DNA of 39,556 nucleotides from assembly GCA_018524725.1 (NCBI GenBank), contig JAEUWP010000201.1:1-39556 (forward strand), in the 5' to 3' direction. Numbering within the stretch: position 1 is the stretch's first letter; every line of letters starts with the position of its first letter. The position numbers and the translations under genes were made by a program. Shown one piece after another: positions 81 through 29,621 of this stretch. The notes below the pieces were generated by a model. That model was not told the DNA's origin and did not search any database. It saw only the letters and a list, made by a program, of their open reading frames with translations. The stretch is from Podaxis mareebaensis. Lineage: Eukaryota; Basidiomycota; Agaricomycetes; Agaricales; Agaricaceae.

Positions 81-706
81 CTGTGCATGGGTGTAAGGTC
101 AGTTCGTTTGACCTTCGTGGCCCGGGCCTTTTGGTAGGCCATGCAAAGCTTTGTCAAAGCTTTGATATAAGTAGTGTGAAATCGGTTGGAGCTGACTTCT
201 ATTGGCGAGTCGGTTTCACAGTACGACTCCGCTATGATTGTTTCAGCGTATATCAACATTTGGTGTTGGTGTTGGCGTTTAATAATGCCATAGTCTGTGA
301 ATACGGAATTGACTTGGTCTTCTAAGGAGACCACGTCGTTGAGAGCAGGGGGCAGGAATTCCAGTGTTGATGGTTCAGAGTGTGAACCATTGGATCAGTG
401 TGTTGTGCTTGATGTGGGGTGCGATGCTGGGAATTGGCTCAGCTTGAATTCAGGGAATAGGGGAAGCTCCTCTGGAGCTTCCTCACTGTTGGTGGATGAT
501 TCATGAGCCGACACATCTGCTGGGGGTGTGGTGATGGGGAAGGGGGTTGTCGGTTCATAATGTGGCGAGGGGATGGATGGGGAAGGGGGAGTGGGTGGAG
601 TGTGTGTGCCTTGTATGTTCACATTGCACATCGTCACATCGAGATGTCATTGCATGTCTTCAGACACGTCATAGTGTCCAGGGGGGTGGTTGTGCTGTGA
701 GGCCAT
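80..706 (-). pseudogene. gag N-terminal fragment, Gypsy copy 2
   Basis: The frame starts at the ATG at 706-704 and matches the N-terminal gag region of the complete element (from 3121) without frameshift. It includes a Pro/Ser/Thr-rich stretch and the conserved block beginning VSLEDQVNSVFTDYGI. Two in-frame TGAs interrupt it. At one, the other copy has CGA; at the second, the other copy has CAA. Conversely, this copy keeps CGA where the complete element has TGA at 3721. These reciprocal differences point to CGA as the ancestral codon. It encodes only the start of gag and cannot be functional. Confidence 0.8.
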
Positions 707-812
707 TTGAGTAAGTGGTGACGAAAGCTTTTTACTTTAGGCTTTTAAGTGCAATAGTTGCGTTTAATGGATTCACTTAGTACGTGCCCAAGTGCGGGGT
801 ATTGTAAAAAAG

Positions 813-1074
813 TGTAAGCCTACTGAGGCTTACCTAGAGCGTAGACCTTAAGTTCACACCAACATACAATAAACCCGATGTATTGGGATGTACGTAGTGT
901 AGGTATAAGGTCAGCTGTCGTGACAACAGCTGACAATGAGAATATAAAGGATATTTTCCTGATGGATTAAGTAATCCATCGGGTTAAGTAACAGCAGGAA
1001 TTAAACAATTAATTAATACAATATTGATTACCAAGAAAGGAGACAGCCACAATAGTAAGGGCTTAACCCTTACA
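813..1074 (-). repeat. LTR of the truncated Gypsy copy
   Basis: A 262-bp LTR in reverse orientation. Its minus-strand sequence begins TGTAAGGG and ends GGCTTACA, like the two LTRs of the complete element. The terminal hairpin GTAAGCC/GGCTTAC and the central GTCAGCTGT/ACAGCTGAC pair are both kept. Confidence 0.9.
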
Positions 1075-1498
1075 GACAGGGAATTGATAAGAAATTTGCC
1101 ATTTTTCTGTTTATGCCCGGGAAATGGTTTTTTATAATGTCCCAAGTATCGCTGAGCCTAACCTGCCACCCCAGGGTGTTCTTGTCTGGGAATGGTTGTA
1201 TAGGGGATATCGGAGCCAGAGCAGGGTTATAAGCGATGTCGGTGTGTCTGGATATCAGACCAGGTTCCTAAAACTAATATGTATCAGGCTCGTCAAACTT
1301 CCTGGCTGTTATGTTCACATCTGATACTAAGGCTCACAACAGAAGTATCTTTAATCTGTCAGATGAAAGAATATACATTGCAGTCTGCAGACGAAGTGGT
1401 GTTGGCCTCTAATTCCATGCAGCGTTCTCCACCACATATTGAAATCCTTGACTGGTTACAGATTTTTGGCCCTGGACTTCTCGCACTGGACTTCTCAT
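1075..1498. other. no recognisable gene
   Basis: Sequence between the Gypsy fragment and the duplicated coactosin block. Only short ORFs are present, with no motif I recognise. Confidence 0.4.
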
Positions 1499-2180: not shown

Positions 2181-2752
2181 GATTGAAGAGATACAACCTC
2201 TGTTAGAGGTTCAGGGAAAGTGAGCACAGTTGAATCCAACAACCACTGGACTTCGAAACCAAACCACAAGAGGTAGGGGCCCAAAAACAGAAAATAAAAC
2301 GAAAATAAAAAAATATAAAAGTCGGCAAACAGAACTTGTGGGTGAACTTTGGATGGCGAGGTGGAGGTCAAATAGAGGTGTGCAATTCACTACCTAGAAT
2401 ACATGGCAAGCTTTTCTTTATATACGAGTAAAACTATGAATCTGAATGGGGATCTCGAGGTGAAAGGGCATAGATGAGGCAAAATGGAAGGTAATTAAGC
2501 TGAAACTGGCTGAGAAATGTAGTAAAACAATAAACCATAGAGATTAAAGGAAGTGTGAAGGCGAAACAGATGATACACAATATCAAATGCAGAGTGAGAA
2601 GGCGAGAGCGAAATGGAGAAGGCATAGGCTGAGACGTGAGCGAAATTTCACAAGACAAGACTACTTGAATACCACTACAAATAAGACAATAAGCAAGGAT
2701 AGGATCATGGGACTGGCGGCGACAGAAGAAATGTAGAAATGTATACACATAG
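2181..2752. other. no recognisable gene; contains the retroelement target site
   Basis: A purine-rich + strand that gives spurious hydrophobic ORFs on the minus strand. The last five bases (2748-2752, CATAG) are the left target-site duplication of the retroelement. Before insertion this sequence would have continued directly into 14428. Confidence 0.5.
2748..2752 (+). repeat. target-site duplication, left copy (CATAG)
   Basis: CATAG immediately precedes the TGTAAGGG start of the 5' LTR. It is repeated exactly at 14423-14427 after the 3' LTR. Five bases is the usual duplication made by Ty3/Gypsy integrases. Confidence 0.92.
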
Positions 2753-3015
2753 TGTAAGGGTTAAGCCCTTACTATCGTGGTCGTCTCCTTTCTTGGTAAT
2801 TAATATTGTATTAATTAATTGTTTAATTCCCACCATTACTTAACCCCAATGGATTACTTAATCCATCAGGAAAATGTCCTTTATATTCTCGTTGTCAGCT
2901 GTTGTCATGACAGCTGACCTTATACCTACACTACGTACATCCCAATACATCAGGCTTATTGTACATTGGTGTGAACTTAAGGTCTACGCTCTAAGTAAGC
3001 CTCAGTAGGCTTACA
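2753..3015 (+). repeat. 5' LTR
   Basis: 263 bp, TGTAAGGG...GGCTTACA. It contains five perfect inverted repeats: GTAAGGG/CCCTTAC (2754-2760, 2766-2772), TAATTAATA/TATTAATTA (2797-2805, 2809-2817), ATGGATTA/TAATCCAT (2849-2856, 2859-2866), GTCAGCTGT/ACAGCTGAC (2894-2902, 2910-2918) and GTAAGCC/GGCTTAC (2995-3001, 3008-3014). The first and last lie one base inside the LTR ends. Promoter and poly(A) signals are presumably here but I cannot place R and U5. Confidence 0.93.
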
Positions 3016-5997
3016 CTTTTTTACAATACCCTGCACTTGGGCACGTACTAAGTGAACCATTAAACGCAACTATTGCACTTAAAAGCCTAAAGTAAAAAGC
3101 TCTCGTCACCACTTACTCAAATGGCCTCACAGCACAATCACCCCCCTGGACACTATGACGTGTCTGAAGACACGCAACGACATCTCAACGCGACAACGTG
3201 TGACGTGAATGTACAAGGCCTACACACTCCACCCACTCCCCCTTCCCCATCTATCCCCTCACCACGCTATGAACTGACAATCCCCTTCCCCATCAACACA
3301 CCACCAGCAGACACGTCGGCTCACGAATCATCCACCAATGGTGAGGAAGCTCCAGAGGAGCTTCCCCTATTTCCTGAATTCAAGCCGAGCCATCCCCCAG
3401 CATTGTGCCCCTCACCAAGCACAACACACCAATCCAATGGTTCACACTCTGAACCATCAATGCCGGAATTCTCGCCCCCTGCTCTCAACAATGTGGTCTC
3501 CTTAGAAGACCAAGTCAACTCTGTATTCACAGACTATGGCATTATTAAACACCAATGCCAACACCAAATGCTGATATACGCTGAATCAATCGTAGCGGAG
3601 TCATACCGGGAAACCGACTCGCCAATAGAAGTCGGCTCCAACCGATTCCGCACCACCTATATCAGAGTTTTGACAAAGCTCTGCATGGCCTACCAAAAGG
3701 CCCAGGCCACGAAGGTCAAATGAACTGACCTTACGCCCATGTATAGTGTATATAAAATACAACCCACTCAACAGTACCTCGAGCACATCCTTGACTCCAC
3801 TAATGATGGGATCACCTATGATCCCCTCAATGCCAAAATTAACAAAGCGATTGAGAGGGCCGAACAACACTCAGTACACGAGCACCATCGTCAACACAAT
3901 AATGATGGACCGCCAGCAACGCCTCAACCACAACTCCACATTGCAGCCCCTCACTTTCATCCATGCCATCCATCTCCCTCACTGACTGCATTATCAAATA
4001 CCACCCAAGCCATGGTGCATTTACATGTGCCCAGGCAACCAGGGGAAATGGATCAAGCTTACAACGAGCGCCTCAGCATGCAATGACAACACGCACAAGG
4101 GTACGGCCTAAGGGCTGCACACTTCACCATTGATGGGTCCACCATCACGGACAGTGAGACGATCCCAGGGAATGATACCTTCACGAACCAATTGCATTGC
4201 TATGCCCCAACCACTGGGGCATCACAATCCCAACTGCCGCCTCCCCTGTTAATGCAACCTGACCCCCGGGGTCAGATCAACACCCTCAACCCACATTGGT
4301 CACCTTGACTGCCCCCTATTCCTTCTCCCAAAGGGAAAGGGCCGATGGGTGTACCATCACCAAGAACAATGGCGCAGGGTAGTAACTATCCTGCAACGAG
4401 TCCTGAGACCATGAGATCACCACTGGCCAAACCCATGGCCAGTGGAAAATCTCCAGTGGCTTCAACATCAAATGTTAAAGCTGAGCTACCTTCCACCACT
4501 AGTGTTCCCATGAATGCTGGTTCATTCCAAGCCTCAAGCACCCCATTCATATTGCCTACGGCTAAACGAACCCCTCATGCTGATAAGTGGAGCGACTGGG
4601 TCGCCCTACAATGAATGCAAAATGAAGACATTCGCACCCGTGGGTCATCTCTGATAGACGACCAATATGTTAGGTTCAACGGACACATACCTGTTGAGGC
4701 CACCATGTCGGAACACGAGGAGCAAAAGGCAGCTACTCATGTATTCTTTGGAGGCCCTCTCAAGACACCTCAAACAGTTAATACCCGCAAAATGGTCAGG
4801 ATGGCATCCTCACCCCAACAACCATCCTCGCAGGGGCAAAATCTGCCCCCGCTATACAATCTACATCCCCTCTGAAATCTTCCTCCCATCCAAGAGGAAG
4901 AAGGAGAGGAAGAAGATGATACAAAGGAGGAGTGGGAGGTATACACCACCTCACGACTCCCCACACCGAACCGAGGGACTCGTCAATACTCTCTAGTCAG
5001 AGAGGCACATGATGAGTCAGTAACTCTGGGGATCATACAATCCGTCCAGAGTTACAATAACCTAATGTATGATCATCTACACTGAACAATTGACCAATAC
5101 CTCGTGCAACCCATCGAGTATCCCGAAGGTTATAAACCTTCACTAAACAAGCTCCCCACAGAAAAGAGCTTAGAACTGTATGGTGGAAGTCACCGATTCA
5201 GAGACTTGTTGTCATTCGTAACAAGTCTCTGTGCTGACTTCACCATGAAAGGACTAGAGGGACAGAGTCCTGCTACGGATCGACTATGAATCCTAACCCT
5301 CCAATATTACCTCGTTGGAGAGGCGAAGGATATGTTCGTTCGTCATGTACTTAGTATAGATTGTAGTAAATACGATTGGACATTCAAGAGCGTCATTATG
5401 GCACTCTATGACAGATTCATCAGGCCGACATCAATGCACAAGGCTCGCGAAAGCCTCAAAGGAGTCAGATATAATCCCAAAGAAGGGATTCAACATTATT
5501 ATGACACCATCTTGGGTTATTCACAAGACATGGCAATCCACCCCGATGATTACTCTCTCATCGAGACCTTCTTAGAAGGTCTACTGCAAACTATGAGACA
5601 CTTCCTCATGTTTGACAGAGGGTTGTCACCTGAAATGAATCAACTCGAAGACTTCGTAGCACACACAGCTGATTACGAGAATCAGATGCAAAGCAGCACC
5701 TTCTTCAAAAGGGTTCTGAAACCCTCCTGACCACATGAACCATCAGCAGGCTTCTCAAAGAAACCTGCTGCAGCAGAACCAAGAACAAGGACCGCATGGG
5801 TCCCTCGTTGCATATCCGCAGGATGGGATCGCATTCCTGCCCATGAGCTAAGGTGATCCTTGAACGCCTTTCCACCAAAATGACCATCGAGACCTCCACC
5901 TCGACAACACAAACCCAAGGCTCAATTCAAACCACAGGTACAGAGCAAAGTACCTGTTAAGCAGAACCAAGGGAACAAGGCCACAGAGAAAGGGCCT

Positions 5998-6039
5998 TGT
6001 TACAAATGCGGAAGACATGGTCACTGGGCACAAGAATGC
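5998..6039 (+). other. gag CCHC zinc knuckle
   Basis: Encodes C-Y-K-C-G-R-H-G-H-W-A-Q-E-C, a perfect CX2CX4HX4C nucleic-acid-binding knuckle. It separates gag from the acidic linker and the protease. Confidence 0.9.
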
Positions 6040-7018
6040 CCAGAGAAGGGGAAACAATGCAGCTATGTATGAGCTGCACACACAGTCGTTCCAGTGAATG
6101 ACGAAGAGGTTCTTCAACAAGAAGTTGAAGAAATTGAACGGGACTCGACCTCAGATGACAACACTGAGGTCCAAGAAGAACCAGAGTCTAGTTCGTCAAA
6201 TGGAGACAAACTAGTACAAGTCGAAGTCATCAAATCAGACTACGGATCTGATGTTGACGATGAATACAATTTCGCCACCATGATTGGTGACGCAGAAGAT
6301 GTCAGTGATAAAGATTGCGACGATTTCAATGTCATCGATGCTCTCACTGTCGAGCCCAGTGAGAAACCAGACCATGAAGTGAGGGTACGCTGCGTTACCC
6401 TCCATAAAGAAAAGGATAAGATCCTCCAGCCCCAAGCCTCCCTCAGCGAGAAACAATGTCTCGCCACTCTCATCACCATCAACAGGATTGATGCTTGGAC
6501 ACTGTGGGACTCCGGTAGCACAACTACCAGCATCACCCCCACATTTGCACAAGTGGCTGGCATCAGGGTCAATGAACTATTAGACCCTCACACACTGCAA
6601 CTGGGGACAGTGGGCAGTTGATCCACTGTCAAGTATGGAGCGACAGTAAACGTCACCATTGGAAACATACGTACTCACATGTATGTAGATGTAGCGAACT
6701 TCGATCACTATGACATGATAATCGGCATGCCATTCATGCGTATGAACAATGTTATCCTTGACTTCATCAAGAATGAAGTCAGAATCAGAAACAAAACCAT
6801 AGCAGTGGCAAACTTCGCTGGCAAATCAGATACTCACCTGCGTCGCCACCATGCAACTGACAAAAACAAGTCAAGTTGACTTGTGGAGGATGTTCGATGA
6901 GATAATATTCGTCGAACATCCATAGAAGAAGTCTGAGATGATGAACAAAGTTCCTGAGGGGAAACATTACCCCACAATAGCTGTCACCTCCTAGAAGAGG
7001 TCAAGAGTTCCATGAACT

Positions 7019-7031
7019 CTCAAAGGGGGGA
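7019..7031 (+). other. internal polypurine-like tract, copy 1
   Basis: CTCAAAGGGGGGA, followed by TG. It lies between protease and reverse transcriptase. Identical over 13 bases to 10939-10951. It could act as a secondary plus-strand primer or be a coincidence of Lys/Gly codons. Confidence 0.35.
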
Positions 7032-8063
7032 TGTAGGTCACAGAGGACACAAGGTCTCCTCCAAGAGAGACAAACTGAAGGGAAAATCACACCCTTCACC
7101 AAACCAAGAGGGACAAAATGCCCCTCATAGACCACAAAAAACGAGATACAAGTCTTGTTTGATGGACAGACCCACTCAGAACCCAATGTTCGAGTGGTAC
7201 TATGACCCCCACATGCCCGCAGAATGGAACGCCATGGTCTGCGGCATATGGGAAATGCGTCATCCTGGGGACGAACTACCAACTTTGACTGGGTTCACAC
7301 AACCCAACCTCGATGACGTAGTCGAAACCCAGGAGTTTACCAGGGTACATTACCCTGATAAAATGGTATGAGATCAACTCCGCAGTATGATTGTCACTCA
7401 TCTTCCAGTAGAAGACAATTCAGAAACACAGATACAAAACACTCGGATAAATGCTGAGAAGAGAAACCGCCACCCTGAGTGACAAGGCCGGTACTCCAAG
7501 AAGGACATACTGATGCTGTGCCAGCAGTGGTTCAATGAATTCGAGGACATAATGCATGGTCCTCCAGACGAGCTTCCCCCATTTCGTGAAGTAAATCATG
7601 AAATAAACCTCATCGACGAGAGTAAGAAGTATAGCTACTTCACCCCCAGATGCCCACAATCCCTGTGTGGGGAGTTTCACCAGAAACTCAACTGCTATGT
7701 GAACGCAAAATGGTGGGAGCCATGACATATCTCCCAAGCAGTGCCATTACTGTGCATCCCAAAGAAAGATGGTCAACTATGAACCATCATTGATGCACAA
7801 CAACGAAATGAAAACACTGTCAAGGATGCTACACCCTTGCCAGACCAAGATGTCATTCGAGAAGATGTTGCTCGAGCATGATATTGATCCAAGATTGATC
7901 TCGCTGATGCCTATGAGCAAGTCCGAGTACATCTGGAAGACGTAGACAAAACAGGATTTGCTACAATCGCTGGCACATATGTCAGCAACATAATGCAGCA
8001 GGGGGATTGTAACGCCCCTGCAACCTTTCAGCAGTTAATGACTGCTATATTTCGCGATATCAT

Positions 8064-8087
8064 AGGTATATGTGTACACATATACCT
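8064..8087. repeat. 24-bp perfect palindrome inside the reverse transcriptase
   Basis: AGGTATATGTGT followed directly by its reverse complement ACACATATACCT. The right half overlaps the codons of the YLDD catalytic motif. It is the only loop-free member of the inverted-repeat array that I found. Confidence 0.9.
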
Positions 8088-10830
8088 TGATGACATCTTC
8101 ATATTTTCTGACTCAATAGATGAACACGAAGATCATCTACGACTTGTGTTTGAGCAACTGCACGAACACAAGTTATATGTCAAACAATCCAAATGTGATC
8201 TGTATGCAGATCGCATCGACTGCCTTGGTCATATTATCGATGACCAAGGGATACACCCAGACAAAGACAAACTGACTCATATTCGGGGGTGGCGCACTCC
8301 CAGAAACTATACCGATGTCCAACGATTCATTGGACTTGTCAACTACCTGGCAAACTTTTTGCCAGATGTATCTGCATACACCAGGCCACTGCTCACAATC
8401 ACCCAGAATGGAACCCTGTTCCATTGGAGACCCCTTCACCAGTGTTGCTTTGACATGGTGAAGAGGATCTGCGAGAAGACCCCTATTGTCAAACTGATAG
8501 AACCCAGAACTGGGGAGCCCATATGGATCATCTGCGACACCTCTAAGACAGGCATCAGAGCCATGTATGGACAAGGACCCACCTGGGCAGACTGCTGCCC
8601 AGCAGGATTCATGTCCAAGAAGTTCACCCCCGCACAGCAGAACTATGCCATGCACGAACTCAAGACACTAGCGATCTTAGAAGTGCTAATGAAGTGGGAG
8701 GACAAGCTCGTCAGCTACCAGATCCATGTTATCATGGATCACAAGGCACTGGAGTTTTTCAAAACTCAAACGCGATTGTCTAGCTGACAACAACAATGGA
8801 TGGACTATCTATCACACTTTAACTTTGACATTACATATGTCAAAGGAGAATGAAATAAAGTAGCAGACTGCTTGTCTCGCTACTTTGAAAGTGATACTCC
8901 AGGAGAAGAACACTCCCCTGGAGAATACATCCAAGTCGACCACAGAATCGACCCTCACTGTGAGGACCTACCTCTACAACGAACCAAGGAGATTGAGCAT
9001 CTCCTCGACAGAGTCAAGGCAATGGTCGAGTGACCATTGCGGCGAAGCACCCACTTGCACGAATGACAGGAAGAACGAGAAATCAAAGCTCGTGAGCTTC
9101 AAGAAGCAGCCCAGAGACAGGTGGCTCAACAGGAGCCACAAGAACGAATTGTCAAGTCTCCAACACTGGGAGACGCGTTAACAGGTGACATCACCACTGA
9201 AGCTCCAATGGAGCTCCCAGCCAATGTGATGAAAACAATCACATCAGGATACGCATCTGACCCCGTATTTTCAGTGGTGCTTGAAGCACCTGAGAAATAC
9301 AGTGGTTTTACCGTCAATGACGACAGTATTATCCGAAGAACTAACCCCCAAGAACAGGAGGTAGTATGCATTCCCAATGATCGATCCTTAATTACAGAGC
9401 TTCTGAATAAAGCTCATGAGATCGTTGGTCACTTCGGTGACCAATGGACAGCAGAGTACCTCCGAAGGTGGTACTGGTGGCCAAAATTAGCCAAAGACGC
9501 ATGCATGTTCTGTAGAACCTGCGAGATATGTCAACGTTCAAAGGTCTCGAATATAAAACCTTCCAGAGAATTACACTCGCTACCAGTCCCAATCAAACCT
9601 TGGGACTCCATCAGAATGGACTTCGTCAGTCCATTCCCTGAATCCAAGGGTTTCGATTACCTTTGGGTTGTCATTTGTAGAATGACTAGCATGGTACACC
9701 TCATCCCAGTGCATATGCGGATGAAAGCATCCGAGTTATCCTGGATATACTTATGAGAAATTGTGAGGCTGCATGGCCTCCCTAGCTCGATCATCAGTGA
9801 TCAAGATTCGAAGTTCACCTCTGTTTGGTGGGTAGAACTCCACAAAATTTTAGGAGCTAAGCTCCTAATGTCCACATCATTCCACCCACAAACAGACAGG
9901 CAGACCGAACACATGAACTGGAATATCGGACAGATATTCCGAGCAATGGTCAGCCACAACCAAAAAAACTGGGTAGACAAGGTACCCATGACCGAGTTTG
10001 CTGTAAACTCAAGTATATCCGCCACTACTGGGTATGCACCGTTTGAATTGAATGGTGGATACATGCCCAGTATGATCTGAGAGATATGGGGCGACTTAAC
10101 ACCCCCTAAGGGTGTTAGACTATTTGCCGAAGCTGCCCTGATGAACCTGGCATCTGCGCATGACGCCATCATAGAAGCACGAGTTTTTCAAACCCGCCAG
10201 GCAAACAAGAGAAGAGGGCCTGAGCCCAACATTAAAGTCGGAGACCCGGTATTCCTTTCCACGAAGAACTTGAATCTGCCAAAAGGCAGAGCTCGCAAAC
10301 TCTGTCCAAAATTTATAGGACCATTCAAGGTCCTAGAAGCCAAGCCTGAGATGTCTAACTATCGTCTCAAGCTACCACCAGCCCTACAGGAATGTCGAAT
10401 ACACCTGACATTCCACATTTCCCTATTGCGACCCTATAATGCATTGGATGATGCACTATTCCCTAGCCGAAATAAACCGGAACCATACGACTTCAGCATA
10501 GATGACGAACATGAATGGTTCATCGATGAAATCATTGGTCATCGTTTCACAAACGATGGCAAGGCGGAGTTCCAAGTCTGCTGGAGTTTAGGCAATATGA
10601 CCTGGGAGCTGTATAGCCATTGTAAGGACCTAGCAGCTCTAGATCAGTATCTAGAGCTGAAAGGTGTTAAGTCAATCCAACAGCTACCACGGATCAGTCA
10701 ATGACTATCCGTGGAAAAATTGATGGTGTCCAAAAATGGACACTCGACCCTGAGGATTGTGTTCCCAATGTTTGGGAACACAAAGATTGGACAAATAACT
10801 TTAATTCGTCCTTTCACCTCAACCACACCC

Positions 10831-13800
10831 ATGGACTCCCAGCACAGCCAACACAACCAGCACACTCAACAACAATGACAACAACTGGCACCGGGTAATA
10901 TCAATCACCCTGCACAGACCGGAGGCCCTATATTGGGCCTCAAAGGGGGGAGGCAGATGGATATATTGCCCGACCTGACACCAACACATGATGGGCAGCA
11001 GTTGGCTGCCCATCAAGCACTACTAACCAGCCTTGTAGGTATGATACCCCAAGGCATCAACCAAATGGATCCATCACATTTACATGCAATGCCCCCACCA
11101 CCTCAGCAATTCATGCAAGGATATCCATATCCTCCATACTACCCCCCACCACCACACATGTATGGTTTTCCACAACCGTACGGACCATACCCTCCTCCTC
11201 TGACGCCATACCTGCCGTTTCAACACCAACAACCTGCGCCATTCACCCAGCAGCCATTTGCACCAAACCTGCAAATGGCAACCATTCCTCAACAGCCCCA
11301 ACAGCCAACTCAAGATCGGCCCATCTCCACACAGAAACCAACCACAATGGCGCCCAATCCATCACGGGCACCTGAACCACGAAGGAGTAACACTACTCCT
11401 TCATCCAGGTCCTCCTCTGTGACGTCAACCAGAGGAAGGAGTAAGGTGCCAAACCCCATGCTACCCTCGTCCTCTAAGGACAAGGGTAAACAGAACCCAC
11501 CTGAACCAGCACCAGCTGTGCTTTCCTCAAAAGCTCGAGGAAAGCAAAGGGCTGTAGACATAGAGCTCGAGGACAATCAATACGTCCAAGAGCTGATGAA
11601 CCAACTCAATGAGGCAGGTCTACCCATAGACCTGATATCCAAGCTGAGCACCAGCTCAAAACATGCTGGCTGCAACACCATTATTGAGGAGCTTTTAACA
11701 AAGCTCCACAGTTTACAAGACCGTTTCATCATGCTTGAAGGACAAAACAGCCTATTGCAGAGGCAGGTCTTGAACCTGCAATGACAGTTGAATGAGAAGT
11801 CAGACCACGAAGAAGAACAGCCTGCAAAACGGCGCGCGATGTCTCAATCAATGATGTCATCTCAATGGGGGGTGCCAAGCACCCCACAAGACCCCACCAC
11901 CCCAACACCACATATGGGCAATGAGGTAAAACCCTTACCTCGCCAACGCCGCCAACCATCACCACCACCAGCTGCGTCGTCATCGCGTCGGCCACCACCA
12001 CCTCCAGCTGACATCACCCTACCCTATATCGAGGAAGTACCATCTGGGGACATCGATGTTCCCATGCACGAACCCTTGATGAGCACAACCTTGAGGTCAA
12101 CGAAACCAACCTCGAGTGGTATTGTACCATCAGAGTCCCTCTTTGAGGGACTCTCCTTTGGCCAACCTATCCTGGTATGCCCACCAGGAAATCTCCTACC
12201 AGAACCCATAATCCACCTCCACCACGAGTTCATCTGATACAGTCCAGACGACCTGGAGGAATGGCTTTCGGGACTGGAATACTCAAGCGACGAAGACAAC
12301 AATTCATCAAGGAATCATCGTAAGAAAAACAAGAAAAACCAAAAGGCACAATTGTCTGGAGACGATGATTGCGCCGGCATCTCAGACCTCATCAGACAAG
12401 GAGGCAGGATTCCTGACCTCTGGGGACTTTGGGGTACCGAGCCGGGTATCAGAGAACACGACAACTCCATGTGAGGAATGTTGTCGCATGACATATACTA
12501 TTGCCAGTGAATAAACACAGTATTCACAGGCACAAATGCCTGACTTGTCGCCAACGCCGAACTCCAAGGCAGGGAGTTCGTGCACAGCAACAAGAAGGGC
12601 ACAGTGCACCACATCACAGGTTGGGGTCTACTGATGACCCCGAGACAAGTCATACGACTATGGCAGTTTATGAATAACCACCATGTCAACATTCACAGCA
12701 GATTCGAGGCATACTTCCTACTCCGAGAACTGCACAATATCGCAACCTCAACCATGCCAGAGCATCACGATGATGCTATGGACTTCATATTGAACCTTGA
12801 GGGGTACGACCCCAACTTCCTGGCGCCTGGGATGCAACAGGAATATATGACCAGGCTCGAGCCCATTCTGTGCACCGTGCAAGATCACGGCACTAGGAAC
12901 GTTCTCAAATGGAACGAGGGTAAAGGTCTCCCGATGCTGACTGGCCCTCAGCTTTTTGATATTGACCTCTTAGGTCAATATCTCCTCATCCACGGAAATC
13001 CCAATACCTGCAATGCCTACAATGGCATTGCATTCGAACAACAAAGACTCATCCACCGCTGTTGCATCTTCGGTTATGGCTTGGGTCGAGCATTGAGCCC
13101 ATCTGACAAGAGCACCTCACAGAAATTCATGAGGCTATTTGCCATTCTCGTCGCGACTCTGAACTTATACCGGGAATTCATTGCCAGATATAACAGTCGC
13201 GTTCCACAAGAATGCGCCTACTCCTCACAAAACAGGCCTGTATTTTCAATACAGTCCCTGGACATAACCCCCTATGCTGCACACAATTTGAGCCTCAACA
13301 ACATGGCTCATGTCCTCATCCGTAACAGTATACCCACATCATGGGTAGACCATGCATATCTCTTCAGGTTGTGGTGGCTCAACCACACCTATCGTGGTGA
13401 CCAACTACACCACAATTTATACGATGAACATGACAATCACCGAGTGGAATACCTCGACTGGTATCATGAACCACTGGCAATCCCAGAGTGGGATGGATGG
13501 AGACATCCCACTGACAACGACCTCAATCAATTCTTGTACTTTGAGTACAAGAACACTCAACAAGAAAAGGGGGAACACTTTGTTCCCCAAGGATGGTTAC
13601 CAGCAGGGGCCTCGCCTTACTTCCAGCTCCTACAGAACTGCGACTACCCTCAGTGTCTGCTGGAGCCACCCCTATCCCAACTGCGGCTGACCCATCCCCT
13701 TGTGCTAACTCTCGGTGAGGTGGCACCTGCCATCCCTGATGAAGTGGCTCTCGATACAGATGCCCAAATGACAGAGGCCAACACCTCTGTATCCACACTC

Positions 13801-14043
13801 GCTGCCACTGAATCTCACTTGTCTGATGTGACCATGACCAAGGCCAATGCCTCTGCCCTTGCGTCCGATCTCCCACCCATTGCTGTTTTGGCTGAGGCCA
13901 ACGCCTCCGCCTCCTCATCCCAGGACCCCATTGGTGAATCCTCGTCGATCGCCTCTTCATGCTCACGCTTGTCCTCATCACCTTTGTGATCGAGTTGACT
14001 CCAGCCCTGCATCCCCTACGAGGTGATCCATCACCTCGTCTAA
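10831..14043 (+). pseudogene. accessory coding region downstream of the chromodomain, unrecognised
   Basis: In the same phase as gag-pol. A plausible own start is the ATG at 10831; the first non-TGA stop is the TAA at 14041-14043. Layout: a Gln-rich start, a long Pro/Gln/Tyr-rich segment (about 11,080-11,330), a Ser/Arg/Lys-rich segment, a coiled-coil-like stretch (about 11,580-11,780, Leu/Gln-rich), a second Pro-rich block, then a compact region of about 330-350 residues (about 12,545-13,640) rich in Trp, His and Tyr, and a Ser/Ala-rich tail. Eight TGAs interrupt it. I recognise no family; it is not an envelope-like protein by eye (no signal peptide or membrane helix seen). It is either part of one giant polyprotein or a separate ORF. 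The short overlapping +1-frame ORF at 10701-10898 is an alternative for the junction. Confidence 0.7.
10939..10951 (+). other. internal polypurine-like tract, copy 2
   Basis: CTCAAAGGGGGGA, about 235 bases after the end of the chromodomain ORF. This is where the polypurine tract of an ordinary-length chromovirus would lie. Confidence 0.35.
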
Positions 14044-14145
14044 ATCTTACTACTGACTGGGCGCTATCTGTGTCCCCGTCTCCCACTCGTCACCACAAGT
14101 AACCTCATTACTTGTGTCCTGAAATTCTTGACCATACCCTACGGT

Positions 14146-14159
14146 CTCAACAGGGGGTG
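14146..14159 (+). other. polypurine tract of the chromovirus
   Basis: CTCAACAGGGGGTG abuts the TG of the 3' LTR, the position of the plus-strand primer in LTR elements. It is less pure than the two internal look-alikes at 7019-7031 and 10939-10951. Confidence 0.6.
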
Positions 14160-14422
14160 TGTAAGGGTTAAGCCCTTACTATCGTGGTCATCTCCTTTCT
14201 TGGTAATTAATATTGTATTAATTAATTGTTTAATTCCCACTGTTACTTAACCCCGATGGATTACTTAATCCATCAGGAAAATGTCCTTTATATTCTCGTT
14301 GTCAGCTGTCATCACGACAGCTGACCTTATACCTACACTACGTACATCCCAATACATCAGGCTTATTGTACGTTGGTGTGAACTTAAGGTCTACGCTCTA
14401 AGTAAGCCTCAGTAGGCTTACA
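14160..14422 (+). repeat. 3' LTR
   Basis: 263 bp, collinear with the 5' LTR with no indels. The eight differences fall at six dinucleotides and are all CG/TG/CA alternatives. The five inverted repeats are shared, and the third is one base pair longer here (GATGGATTA/TAATCCATC). Confidence 0.93.
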
Positions 14423-14427
14423 CATAG
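14423..14427 (+). repeat. target-site duplication, right copy (CATAG)
   Basis: Exact copy of 2748-2752, directly after the CA end of the 3' LTR. Confidence 0.92.
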
Positions 14428-18688: not shown

Positions 18689-19400
18689 ATCATCATTCAA
18701 TGTCTGCCACTCAACTCGATTGCGATAAATCGGCAATCCCGAATTGTGAGTCTGCTTGTCTGTTGATCAGGGGCATTTACGAGGGAGACGTCCAACGGGG
18801 TGAATTTGCTAGCCTCTTCCCTGAACGAGGACATGGTACGAAGTGCTTGGAATGGGATTAAAAGGGTGCCTCCAAGTAGAATCGCGCTGGAGTTTAGAGG
18901 AAGGATATTTCTGGATATTAGTAATATAACGAAAGCATTGAGACAAACAACAAATCTGGATCCCTCCCGTGCCCGTAGAACCAGGATGTCCCGTAGGGAG
19001 ATATAATAACGTCGGTGTCCAGGGAATTCTTGTACAGATCCACTCCTGCAAATGTTATACCCCGTCATAGCTCGCACCCCCCGCCTCGAACATCCAATCA
19101 ACACACGGCCCGAAAACGCGAGGGTAAGAAGTGCCCACCTTGCGCAAACGAATGACGATGGGTTCTTCCTTCAAATCATCTCTCTCCCTCGCAGCAACTT
19201 CAATAGAGAAAACCCTCAAGACTTCTTTGACATCTGCTGTGTGTACGGAGATCTACGAGAAGGAAAGATCGTGGAGGATCAGATCATGAGGTCGCGGAGA
19301 GGAAGGTGGGATCAAGAAGTCAAGACACACCTTTGCTTTCCTCATCACCTTACAGGTCGGACCTATCCACACCTGTCGGTCGGTGTGTCAATTTACATCC
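18689..19400 (-). repeat. duplicated block, intact copy (coactosin 3' half plus flank)
   Basis: Partner of 1499-2180. It covers coactosin exons 3-5 and about 370 bp downstream of the stop. Divergence is similar inside and outside the exons, suggesting the other copy evolves neutrally. Confidence 0.75.
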
Positions 19401-29536: not shown

Positions 29537-29621
29537 GCCCGCTTGGCTTAGGGGTAAAGCGTGCCACTCGTATTCTAAATACGGAATGGTAAGATCAGTC
29601 GTTCGAATCGGCTAGTGGGCA
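29537..29621 (+). tRNA. tRNA-Thr (anticodon CGT) with a 13-nt intron
   Basis: Acceptor stem GCCCGCT/AGTGGGC, D stem GCTT/AAGC, anticodon stem TGCCA/TGGTA, T stem AGTCG/CGGCT around a TTCGAAT loop, discriminator A at 29621. The anticodon loop is 20 nt. Removing 13 nt after position 37 leaves CTCGTAA, anticodon CGT, decoding ACG. The intron position is the canonical one for nuclear tRNAs. A box (TGGCTTAGGGG) and B box (GTTCGAATCG) are present for Pol III. Confidence 0.88.

What the first reader, a model, noticed from the sequence alone, without database searches (positions are those of the whole stretch)
2753..14422. Retroelement saturated with short perfect inverted repeats
The LTRs and the whole coding region carry perfect inverted repeats at a striking density. 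I found at least 13 internal ones with arms of 9 bp or more and loops of 14 nt or less. Examples: TTGTGTTCCCAA/TTGGGAACACAA at 10757-10783, GATATTGACCT/AGGTCAATATC at 12958-12982, CAGCTCTAGAT/ATCTAGAGCTG at 10634-10659, TTCTTGTACT/AGTACAAGAA at 13531-13553, AGAGTCCCTC/GAGGGACTCT at 12132-12154. For random sequence of this length about 0.7 are expected (15 loop sizes x 11,670 / 4^9). Arms of 6-8 bp occur every 50-100 bases, for example TTGGTCAC-TTCG-GTGACCAA at 9425-9444. Two checked repeats (GGAAGCTCC at 3345 and TGGTTCA near 3437) are also present in the second copy. Host exons do not show this. It could mean a selected, highly folded genomic RNA, or a reverse transcriptase that creates palindromes by template switching. 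I know of no description of this for chromoviruses.
Basis: seen in the sequence. Interest (0 to 1): 0.93.

Follow-up and report, generated by a model that had tools for sequence, protein, structure and literature searches.

The report
Retroelement family packed with perfect hairpins
One group of retrovirus-like mobile elements, in what looks like a fungal genome, carries about ten times more short, perfectly self-complementary stretches than chance in its terminal repeats and its whole coding region, with hints that DNA copying itself makes or maintains them; that would be an unusual way to shape protein-coding DNA.

Summary
The element (LTRs 2753-3015 and 14160-14422, TSD CATAG) has 34 perfect inverted repeats with arms >=9 and loops <=15, against 0.5 in dinucleotide shuffles; at arms >=7, 103 against 9.8; the 25-kb flank shows no excess. 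Synonymous-codon shuffles give 10.6 against 90. The 14 fetched close copies and 13 fetched members of a sister family share the density; 35 RT regions of other Ty3-like elements do not. Only 5 hairpins of 33 and 27 share a centre between the families. Sense-RNA folding is disfavoured: G-U helices are enriched about as much as A-C helices, unlike an rRNA control; both strands fold equally; only repeats within about 15 nt are in strong excess. Loop inversions and compensated stems occur between copies. Best reading: a lineage-specific, DNA-level strand-switching process that makes and perfects hairpins, probably during reverse transcription. Selection is not excluded: one template-switch prediction failed, one is inconclusive, stems change somewhat less than their surroundings. 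In-frame TGA codons are decayed CpG, not recoding.

The parts
2753..3015 (+). 5' LTR, 263 bp, TG...CA; 6 inverted repeats with arms >=7 in 2753-3017 (22.6 per kb)
14160..14422 (+). 3' LTR, 263 bp; 8 differences from the 5' LTR, all of CpG-decay type; 6 inverted repeats with arms >=7 in 14159-14423
2748..2752 (.). target-site duplication CATAG (other copy at 14423-14427)
3091..14043 (+). single frame of 3650 codons without TAA/TAG up to TAA 14041, interrupted by 37 in-frame TGA; in the part compared between copies (7606-10505) the TGA sites are decayed CGA codons; 90 inverted repeats with arms >=7 (8.2 per kb)
5995..6045 (+). zinc knuckle (zf-CCHC)
   Evidence: Pfam, (window coordinates computed from the match)
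6454..6792 (+). aspartyl protease (RVP_2)
   Evidence: Pfam
7798..8238 (+). reverse transcriptase (RVT_1), YLDD motif present; nearest solved structure by sequence 4ol8 (reverse transcriptase/ribonuclease H)
8515..8778 (+). RNase H domain (RT_RNaseH)
   Evidence: Pfam
9379..9888 (+). integrase: H2C2 zinc finger (9379-9546) and rve core (9607-9888; rve below its curated cut-off)
   Evidence: Pfam
10240..10437 (+). Tf2-1-like SH3 domain
   Evidence: Pfam
9425..9444 (.). hairpin TTGGTCAC-TTCG-GTGACCAA; in copy L062 its loop reads as the reverse complement (TGAA against TTCA)
81..1077 (-). partial copy of the same family in inverted orientation (LTR 771-1077 and 5' internal part 81-770), 8 inverted repeats with arms >=7 against 0.6 expected

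Best explanation
A clade of Ty3-like LTR retroelements carries a lineage-specific, strand-symmetric mutational habit. While its DNA is copied (most likely during its own reverse transcription), the growing strand folds back on nearby imperfect or chance palindromes, copies one arm from the other, and returns. This perfects or extends short hairpins (arms of about 6-10 bp, loops mostly 3-10 nt), sometimes flips the loop, and spreads a change in one arm to the other. Repeated over many transposition cycles it holds hairpin density about ten times above chance in the LTRs and the coding region while individual sites turn over. Shown: the excess, its confinement to this clade within the genome as far as examined, its DNA-like perfection, its local range, the turnover, the loop inversions and the compensated stems. 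Inferred: that the copying enzyme is the element's own reverse transcriptase, and that the process rather than selection sets the density.
For: Excess against dinucleotide and synonymous-codon shuffles. The 14 fetched close copies and 13 fetched sister-family members have it; 30 + 5 RT regions of other Ty3-like elements do not (93 observed against 81.1 expected, and 16 against 19.0; some of these are likely copies of one another), which points away from a host-wide process. Arms are perfect Watson-Crick and end abruptly: beyond the first mismatch pairing is slightly raised for two bases (48 of 145 and 45 of 144 against 0.245 expected) and then near background. Pure Watson-Crick arms of 8 or more are 42-fold enriched, with G-U 1.9-fold and A-C 3.4-fold. 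Folding z is -2.33 sense and -2.16 antisense. 9-base inverted matches: 57 at distances 0-15, 6 at 16-50; direct and mirror matches within 15 nt number 5 and 3 (no shuffle control). Positions turn over: 5 shared centres between 33 and 27 hairpins (0.44 expected) and 2 shared between 24 and 30 where the proteins are only 32% identical. Loop inversions: CT to AG in 3 of 30 LTRs, centre C to G in 9 of 30 LTRs, TTCA to TGAA in copy L062, TCC to GGA in copy L085. Compensated stem GTAAGCC/GGCTTAC to GTAAACC/GGTTTAC in 5 of 29 LTRs. Denser in the LTR (22.6 per kb) than in the ORF (8.2 per kb), as expected if protein constraint filters events. PMC8794818 (abstract, passages and Discussion read) describes template switching making and maintaining perfect stems and inverting loops.
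Against: If whole arms had been overwritten from the other arm, one arm should differ more between families; instead the arms differ by similar amounts (mean |dL-dR| 0.94, 1.11, 1.03, 1.36 against 1.40, 1.41, 1.47, 1.44 in matched windows; correlation 0.68 against 0.26 in the first comparison). Base composition does not point to one arm as the source (A+C in 5' arms 395 of 841). Amino-acid identity in hairpin arms is not clearly lower than elsewhere. Recent polarised gains are few and mostly single substitutions. On the branch of the other lineage, third-position changes are fewer in stems than outside in 4 of 5 comparisons, which hints at conservation. Loop inversions show that hairpins form in DNA, not that they arose by strand switching; they could be a by-product of hairpins kept for another reason. 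Double changes keep pairing in 16 of 31 pairs (L064 to L078) and 6 of 24 (L078 to L064), no evident excess.
Confidence: 0.47

Rival explanations
1. Selection, not mutation bias: short local hairpins are favoured in the element's nucleic acid (single-stranded cDNA, extruded double-stranded DNA, or RNA of both strands), anywhere along it, for example for packaging, protection or strand transfer. Density is selected, positions are free.
For: Density is held at the same level in both families despite turnover. Some stems show compensation. Arms of the same hairpin diverge to similar extents. Third-position differences are fewer in stems than outside in all 7 within-family comparisons, p<0.05 in 5 of 7. 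Polarised on the other lineage's branch they are still fewer in 4 of 5: 9/164 against 62/710, 3/132 against 46/742, 8/136 against 62/733, 3/98 against 59/771; equal in one, 10/155 against 47/722 (no test was run, small numbers). Codon phases in which most pairs involve a third position are preferred (40 and 30 against 20).
Against: Part of the third-position deficit follows from choosing hairpins because they are intact in one lineage. Perfect arms are enriched about 42-fold but arms with one or two G-U only about 2-fold, which is hard to get from selection for stability.
Confidence: 0.36
2. Genome-scale ordered RNA structure: the sense genomic RNA is selected to be highly folded.
For: Sense windows of 140 nt fold with mean z -2.33, against 0.03 in 12 kb of host flank. 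In three little-decayed pieces at arms >=7, G-U is 2.8-fold and A-C 2.1-fold.
Against: Antisense is as low (-2.16). G-U helices are not consistently preferred over A-C helices, whereas the E. coli rRNA control shows G-U 1.9-fold and A-C 1.0-fold at arms >=7 (at arms >=8, few cases, 2.0 and 1.6). No strong excess of pairing beyond about 15 nt.
Confidence: 0.07
3. A host process (DNA repair or replication of this organism, or its CpG decay) makes hairpins.
For: Most of the copies compared are CpG-decayed, so a host process acts on them.
Against: Host flank and 35 RT regions of other elements, some equally decayed, have no excess; two little-decayed copies, with CpG observed/expected 0.96 and 1.00, have as many hairpins.
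Confidence: 0.03
4. Chance, composition or codon bias.
For: None found.
Against: Dinucleotide and synonymous-codon controls.
Confidence: 0.01

Closest known systems
Ty3/Gypsy LTR retrotransposons (Metaviridae), Ty3 and Tf2-1 as named relatives
   Same: LTRs with TG...CA and a 5-bp target duplication, zinc knuckle, protease, RT, RNase H, integrase with H2C2 and Tf2-1-like SH3 domain, in that order.
   Different: Very long single frame (3650 codons) with about 970 codons before the zinc knuckle and about 1200 after the SH3 domain without a Pfam match over a curated cut-off; tenfold hairpin density, not seen in 35 other Ty3-like RT regions of the same genome.
Template-switch mutations that create and maintain hairpins (Monttinen and Loytynoja 2022, PMC8794818)
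   Same: Perfect reverse-complement stems, compensated stems, loop inversions (paper: abstract, passages and Discussion read; here).
   Different: The paper treats DNA replication and RNA genes; words beginning 'retrotransposon', 'reverse transcript' and 'viral' are not found in its main text. Here the pattern is spread over a protein-coding mobile element at about nine hairpins per kb (arms >=7). Of the asymmetries that the paper discusses, G over C in 5' arms is weakly seen, T over A is not.
Genome-scale ordered RNA structure of RNA viruses (recalled; only a search listing seen)
   Same: Folding well below shuffled controls along the whole element.
   Different: Equal on both strands, no consistent G-U preference, no strong excess beyond about 15 nt.

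Membership tests
Ty3/Gypsy LTR retrotransposon (Metaviridae) | LTRs with TG...CA ends and target-site duplication | tested here: met
   263-bp LTRs, TSD CATAG
Ty3/Gypsy LTR retrotransposon (Metaviridae) | Domain order protease, RT, RNase H, integrase; RT closest to Ty3 | tested here: met
   (best solved chains 4ol8, E 1.7e-47, and Ty3 Gag-Pol 7q5b; rve below its cut-off)
Ty3/Gypsy LTR retrotransposon (Metaviridae) | Primer binding site next to the 5' LTR | tested here: inconclusive
   no complementary match of 8 bases or more between the 20 bases after the LTR and the LTR itself (self-priming type); tRNA primers not tested
Chromovirus | Chromodomain at the integrase C terminus | tested here: not met
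   SH3_Tf2-1 found; no chromodomain listed for the pieces of 8791-14040 at E 0.01, nor for 10690-14040 at E 10; pieces were read with TGA as W
Chromovirus | Position in an RT phylogeny | not tested
   no tree was built
Template-switch hairpin formation | Perfect reverse-complement arms ending abruptly | tested here: met
Template-switch hairpin formation | Exact loop inversions | tested here: met
   3 of 59 haplotype pairs with >=2 transversions in hairpin context against 14 of 2640 elsewhere (pairs are not independent); LTR loops; whole-hairpin reverse-complement haplotypes are rare, 1 of 130 pairs in the LTR and 0 of 871 in coding
Template-switch hairpin formation | Excess of changes in one arm when a hairpin is new | tested here: not met
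Template-switch hairpin formation | Directional (5' base) bias in stems: G over C and T over A | tested here: inconclusive
   arms >=7: window element G:C 227:179 (p 0.02), T:A 219:216; sister family G:C 145:108 (p 0.023), T:A 83:115 (p 0.027, opposite sign)
Genome-scale ordered RNA structure | Sense-strand structure with G-U tolerance | tested here: not met

The most novel reading that the evidence does not exclude
A retroelement lineage whose own reverse transcriptase habitually folds back and copies itself, so that its whole genome, coding region included, is continually rewritten towards perfect short hairpins: a heritable copying habit that shapes protein-coding sequence.
Probability: 0.4. 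Interest if true: 0.88.

Novelty: new variant of a known kind. Interest (0 to 1): 0.74.

Why it matters
In the paper read here, short-range template switching is inferred from scattered events in the history of RNA genes (PMC8794818). Here is an element with about one such hairpin per 114 bases, dozens of copies in one genome, a sister family with a largely different hairpin set, and control retroelements in the same genome without the trait. That makes the questions 'does copying create hairpins?' and 'how fast do they turn over?' directly testable. If instead selection maintains them, it would be selection for perfect local hairpins independent of position and strand, which I do not know to be described for a retroelement (the literature check was thin, see full report).

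Tried and rejected
UGA read as sense: the frame 3091-14040 has 37 TGA and no TAA/TAG, which at first looked like a recoded stop. Rejected: at the codon sites with TGA in 7606-10505 the 15 compared sequences read TGA 192, CGA 179, CAA 139 times, that is CpG decay; CpG observed/expected is 0.54 in the element and 0.94 in the flank.

Purifying selection on stems from third-position differences: partly explained by choosing hairpins that are intact in one lineage; the polarised counts still lean that way in 4 of 5 comparisons. Left open. After rechecking these counts I lowered the best explanation from 0.50 to 0.47 and the novel case from 0.42 to 0.40, and raised selection from 0.33 to 0.36.

Covariation as proof of RNA structure: present in LTR stems, not in evident excess in the coding region.

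Arm asymmetry as proof of template switching: not found. Strand direction: inconclusive.

Loop inversion search without a transversion filter: swamped by CpG decay, replaced. Exact whole-hairpin haplotypes: 1 reverse-complement pair of 130 in the LTR, 0 of 871 in coding (both families).

Eight paper searches and three paper look-ups failed or timed out (67, 68, 69). The four paper searches that were answered listed 2, 2, 0 and 5 papers; one paper was read in part, the others were seen as listings only.
Full report
THE OBSERVATION. The listed examples were found letter for letter. Between 2753 and 14422 there are 34 perfect inverted repeats with arms of 9 or more and loops up to 14-15. Thirty dinucleotide shuffles give 0.50 on average, never more than 2. 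At arms of 7 or more the count is 103 against 9.8; the inverted partial copy at 81-1077 has 8 against 0.6; the stretch 1078-2752 has 2 against 1.5; the flank 14424-39556 has 18 against 20.5. Synonymous-codon shuffles of the frame, which keep the protein, give 10.6 against 90. The excess begins at arms of 5-6 bp and rises with length, with loops mostly 3-10 nt. About 19% of the element lies in hairpins with arms of 7 or more, against 1.6% of the flank.

WHAT THE ELEMENT IS. LTRs of 263 bp at 2753-3015 and 14160-14422, target duplication CATAG, zinc knuckle, protease, RT, RNase H, integrase and a Tf2-1-like SH3 domain. The RT matches the solved RT/RNase H 4ol8 at E 1.7e-47 and Ty3 Gag-Pol 7q5b next. 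This is a Ty3-like LTR retroelement. The label chromovirus is not secured: no chromodomain was listed. The host has a 37-Mb assembly; flanking frames with Mcp5_PH, F-box, Neugrin, HlyIII, CTLH and P450 domains suggest a fungus, which is my inference. No call named the organism.

A FALSE LEAD WORTH RECORDING. One frame runs 3650 codons with 37 TGA and no TAA or TAG. It is not recoding. In 15 sequences (window and 14 copies) over 7606-10505, the sites with TGA also read CGA and CAA (192, 179, 139), so arginine CGA codons have decayed at CpG. The two LTRs of the window element differ at 8 places, all of CpG type.

WHO HAS THE TRAIT. In about 2.9 kb of the RT-integrase region, the window and 14 close copies have 26-37 repeats of arms 7 or more against 1.2-4.1 expected. 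Thirteen members of a sister family (66-67% nucleotide and 67-71% protein identity in three measured) have 15-30 against 1.3-4.5 (two of these pieces are shorter). Thirty RT regions of other elements have 93 in all against 81.1, and five further ones have 16 against 19.0 (ten shuffles per sequence; some of the thirty are probably copies of one another). In the protein search the two families lie at 66% identity or more to the query and the next match at 36%. Two copies with almost no CpG decay have as many hairpins as decayed ones, so decay does not create them.

TURNOVER. Of 33 hairpins in one little-decayed copy and 27 in a sister-family copy, 5 share a centre (0.44 expected by shifting, maximum 3). 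In the C-terminal region, where the proteins are 32% identical, 24 and 30 hairpins share 2 centres. The trait persists while the places change. Amino-acid identity in codons that lie in arms of both copies is 0.83, against 0.72 elsewhere, so sharing is seen mostly where the protein is conserved.

RNA OR DNA. In RNAs that evolved by folding, G-U pairs count as pairs. In E. coli 16S and 23S rRNA, hairpin helices of 7 or more with G-U are 1.9-fold enriched (23 against 11.8), pure Watson-Crick 2.0-fold (5 against 2.5), and those with A-C 1.0-fold (10 against 10.5); at 8 or more, G-U 2.0 and A-C 1.6 on few cases. In the element pure Watson-Crick arms of 8 or more are 42-fold enriched, G-U 1.9-fold and A-C 3.4-fold; in three little-decayed pieces 44-, 3.5- and 3.9-fold, and at 7 or more 18-, 2.8- and 2.1-fold. 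So there is no consistent preference for G-U. Mean folding z in 140-nt windows is -2.33 sense and -2.16 antisense (difference -0.17 +- 0.15), 0.03 and 0.19 in 12 kb of flank, and 0.07 and -0.18 in one control element; another control element (L042) has -0.94 and -0.49. Inverted 9-mers number 57 within 15 nt and 6 at 16-50 nt. Direct and mirror 9-mers within 15 nt number 5 and 3; these are somewhat more frequent per base of distance than far apart, but nowhere near the inverted ones, and had no shuffle control. This is a local, strand-symmetric, perfect-pairing pattern, unlike selected RNA folding.

EVENTS BETWEEN COPIES. Among 30 LTR copies (some are the two LTRs of one element) the stem GTAAGCC/GGCTTAC is GTAAACC/GGTTTAC in 5 of the 29 that have it, and the loop CT between 9-bp arms is its exact reverse complement AG in 3; the centre of another loop has G in place of C in 9. 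In coding DNA one copy (L062) has the loop of the hairpin at 9425-9444 inverted (TGAA against TTCA) and one sister-family copy (L085) has TCC to GGA. Reverse-complement replacements with at least two transversions make up 3 of 59 haplotype pairs in hairpin context and 14 of 2640 elsewhere, many of the latter in the most diverged copies. Such inversions are expected when a growing DNA strand switches template at a hairpin, and template switching is described as a way to create and maintain stems (PMC8794818; abstract, passages and Discussion read).

RESULTS AGAINST. If whole arms had been overwritten, the two arms should differ unequally from the sister family; they differ more equally than matched windows. 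Composition does not single out one arm as the source; G over C in 5' arms, as the paper discusses, is weakly seen, T over A is not. Arms are not lower in protein identity overall (0.638 and 0.719 against 0.717; 0.389 and 0.351 against 0.292). Polarised recent gains are few and mostly single-base. So if strand switching is the cause, it works mainly by small corrections of near-palindromes, in both directions. Third-position differences are fewer in stems in 7 of 7 within-family comparisons (p<0.05 in 5). Part of this follows from choosing hairpins that are intact in one lineage, but on the other lineage's branch stems are still lower in 4 of 5 comparisons and equal in one. Selection remains a serious rival.

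VERDICT. The excess is real, large, confined to one clade of elements among those examined, and not RNA folding of the ordinary kind. I hold a strand-switching copying process at a little under one in two, selection for local hairpins at a little over one in three. Whether other species carry the family with the same trait could not be examined here, and the literature check was thin (answered searches; eight others failed).

Noticed in passing
3091-14041 and RT matches genome-wide: In-frame stops in this element are TGA only, and inside the 150 RVT_1 matches listed TGA is far commoner than TAG (5) and TAA (2); in this family they are decayed CpG in CGA codons. A quick stop-codon census could mistake this for a recoded genetic code.
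   Followed up: partly
L019 and L005 (G000 C279, LTR starts 11,407 bases apart as in the window): The two LTRs of what looks like one element differ: near its 3' end L019 has a different subtype (stem GTAAACC/GGTTTAC, AAGTAC/GTACTT) than L005, which suggests a mosaic LTR made by recombination or template exchange.
   Followed up: no
29537-29621: A tRNA gene (Rfam tRNA 46.5 bits) that ARAGORN in bacterial mode calls tRNA-Pyl(cta); more likely an intron-containing eukaryotic tRNA with a mis-assigned anticodon (my inference).
   Followed up: no
2101-2177 and 19322-19398: A 77-bp direct repeat at 84% identity outside the element; nature unknown.
   Followed up: no
3091-5990 and 10440-14040: About 970 codons before the zinc knuckle and about 1200 codons after the SH3 domain have no Pfam match over a curated cut-off; the polyprotein is unusually long for a Ty3-like element (recalled).
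   Followed up: partly
L074 and L079: One diverged copy in each family (about 10% and 9% non-CpG divergence), useful for dating hairpin gain and loss.
   Followed up: partly
L042: A control element with slightly negative folding z (-0.94 sense, -0.49 antisense, 24 windows), without a clear hairpin excess (7 against 3.2).
   Followed up: no
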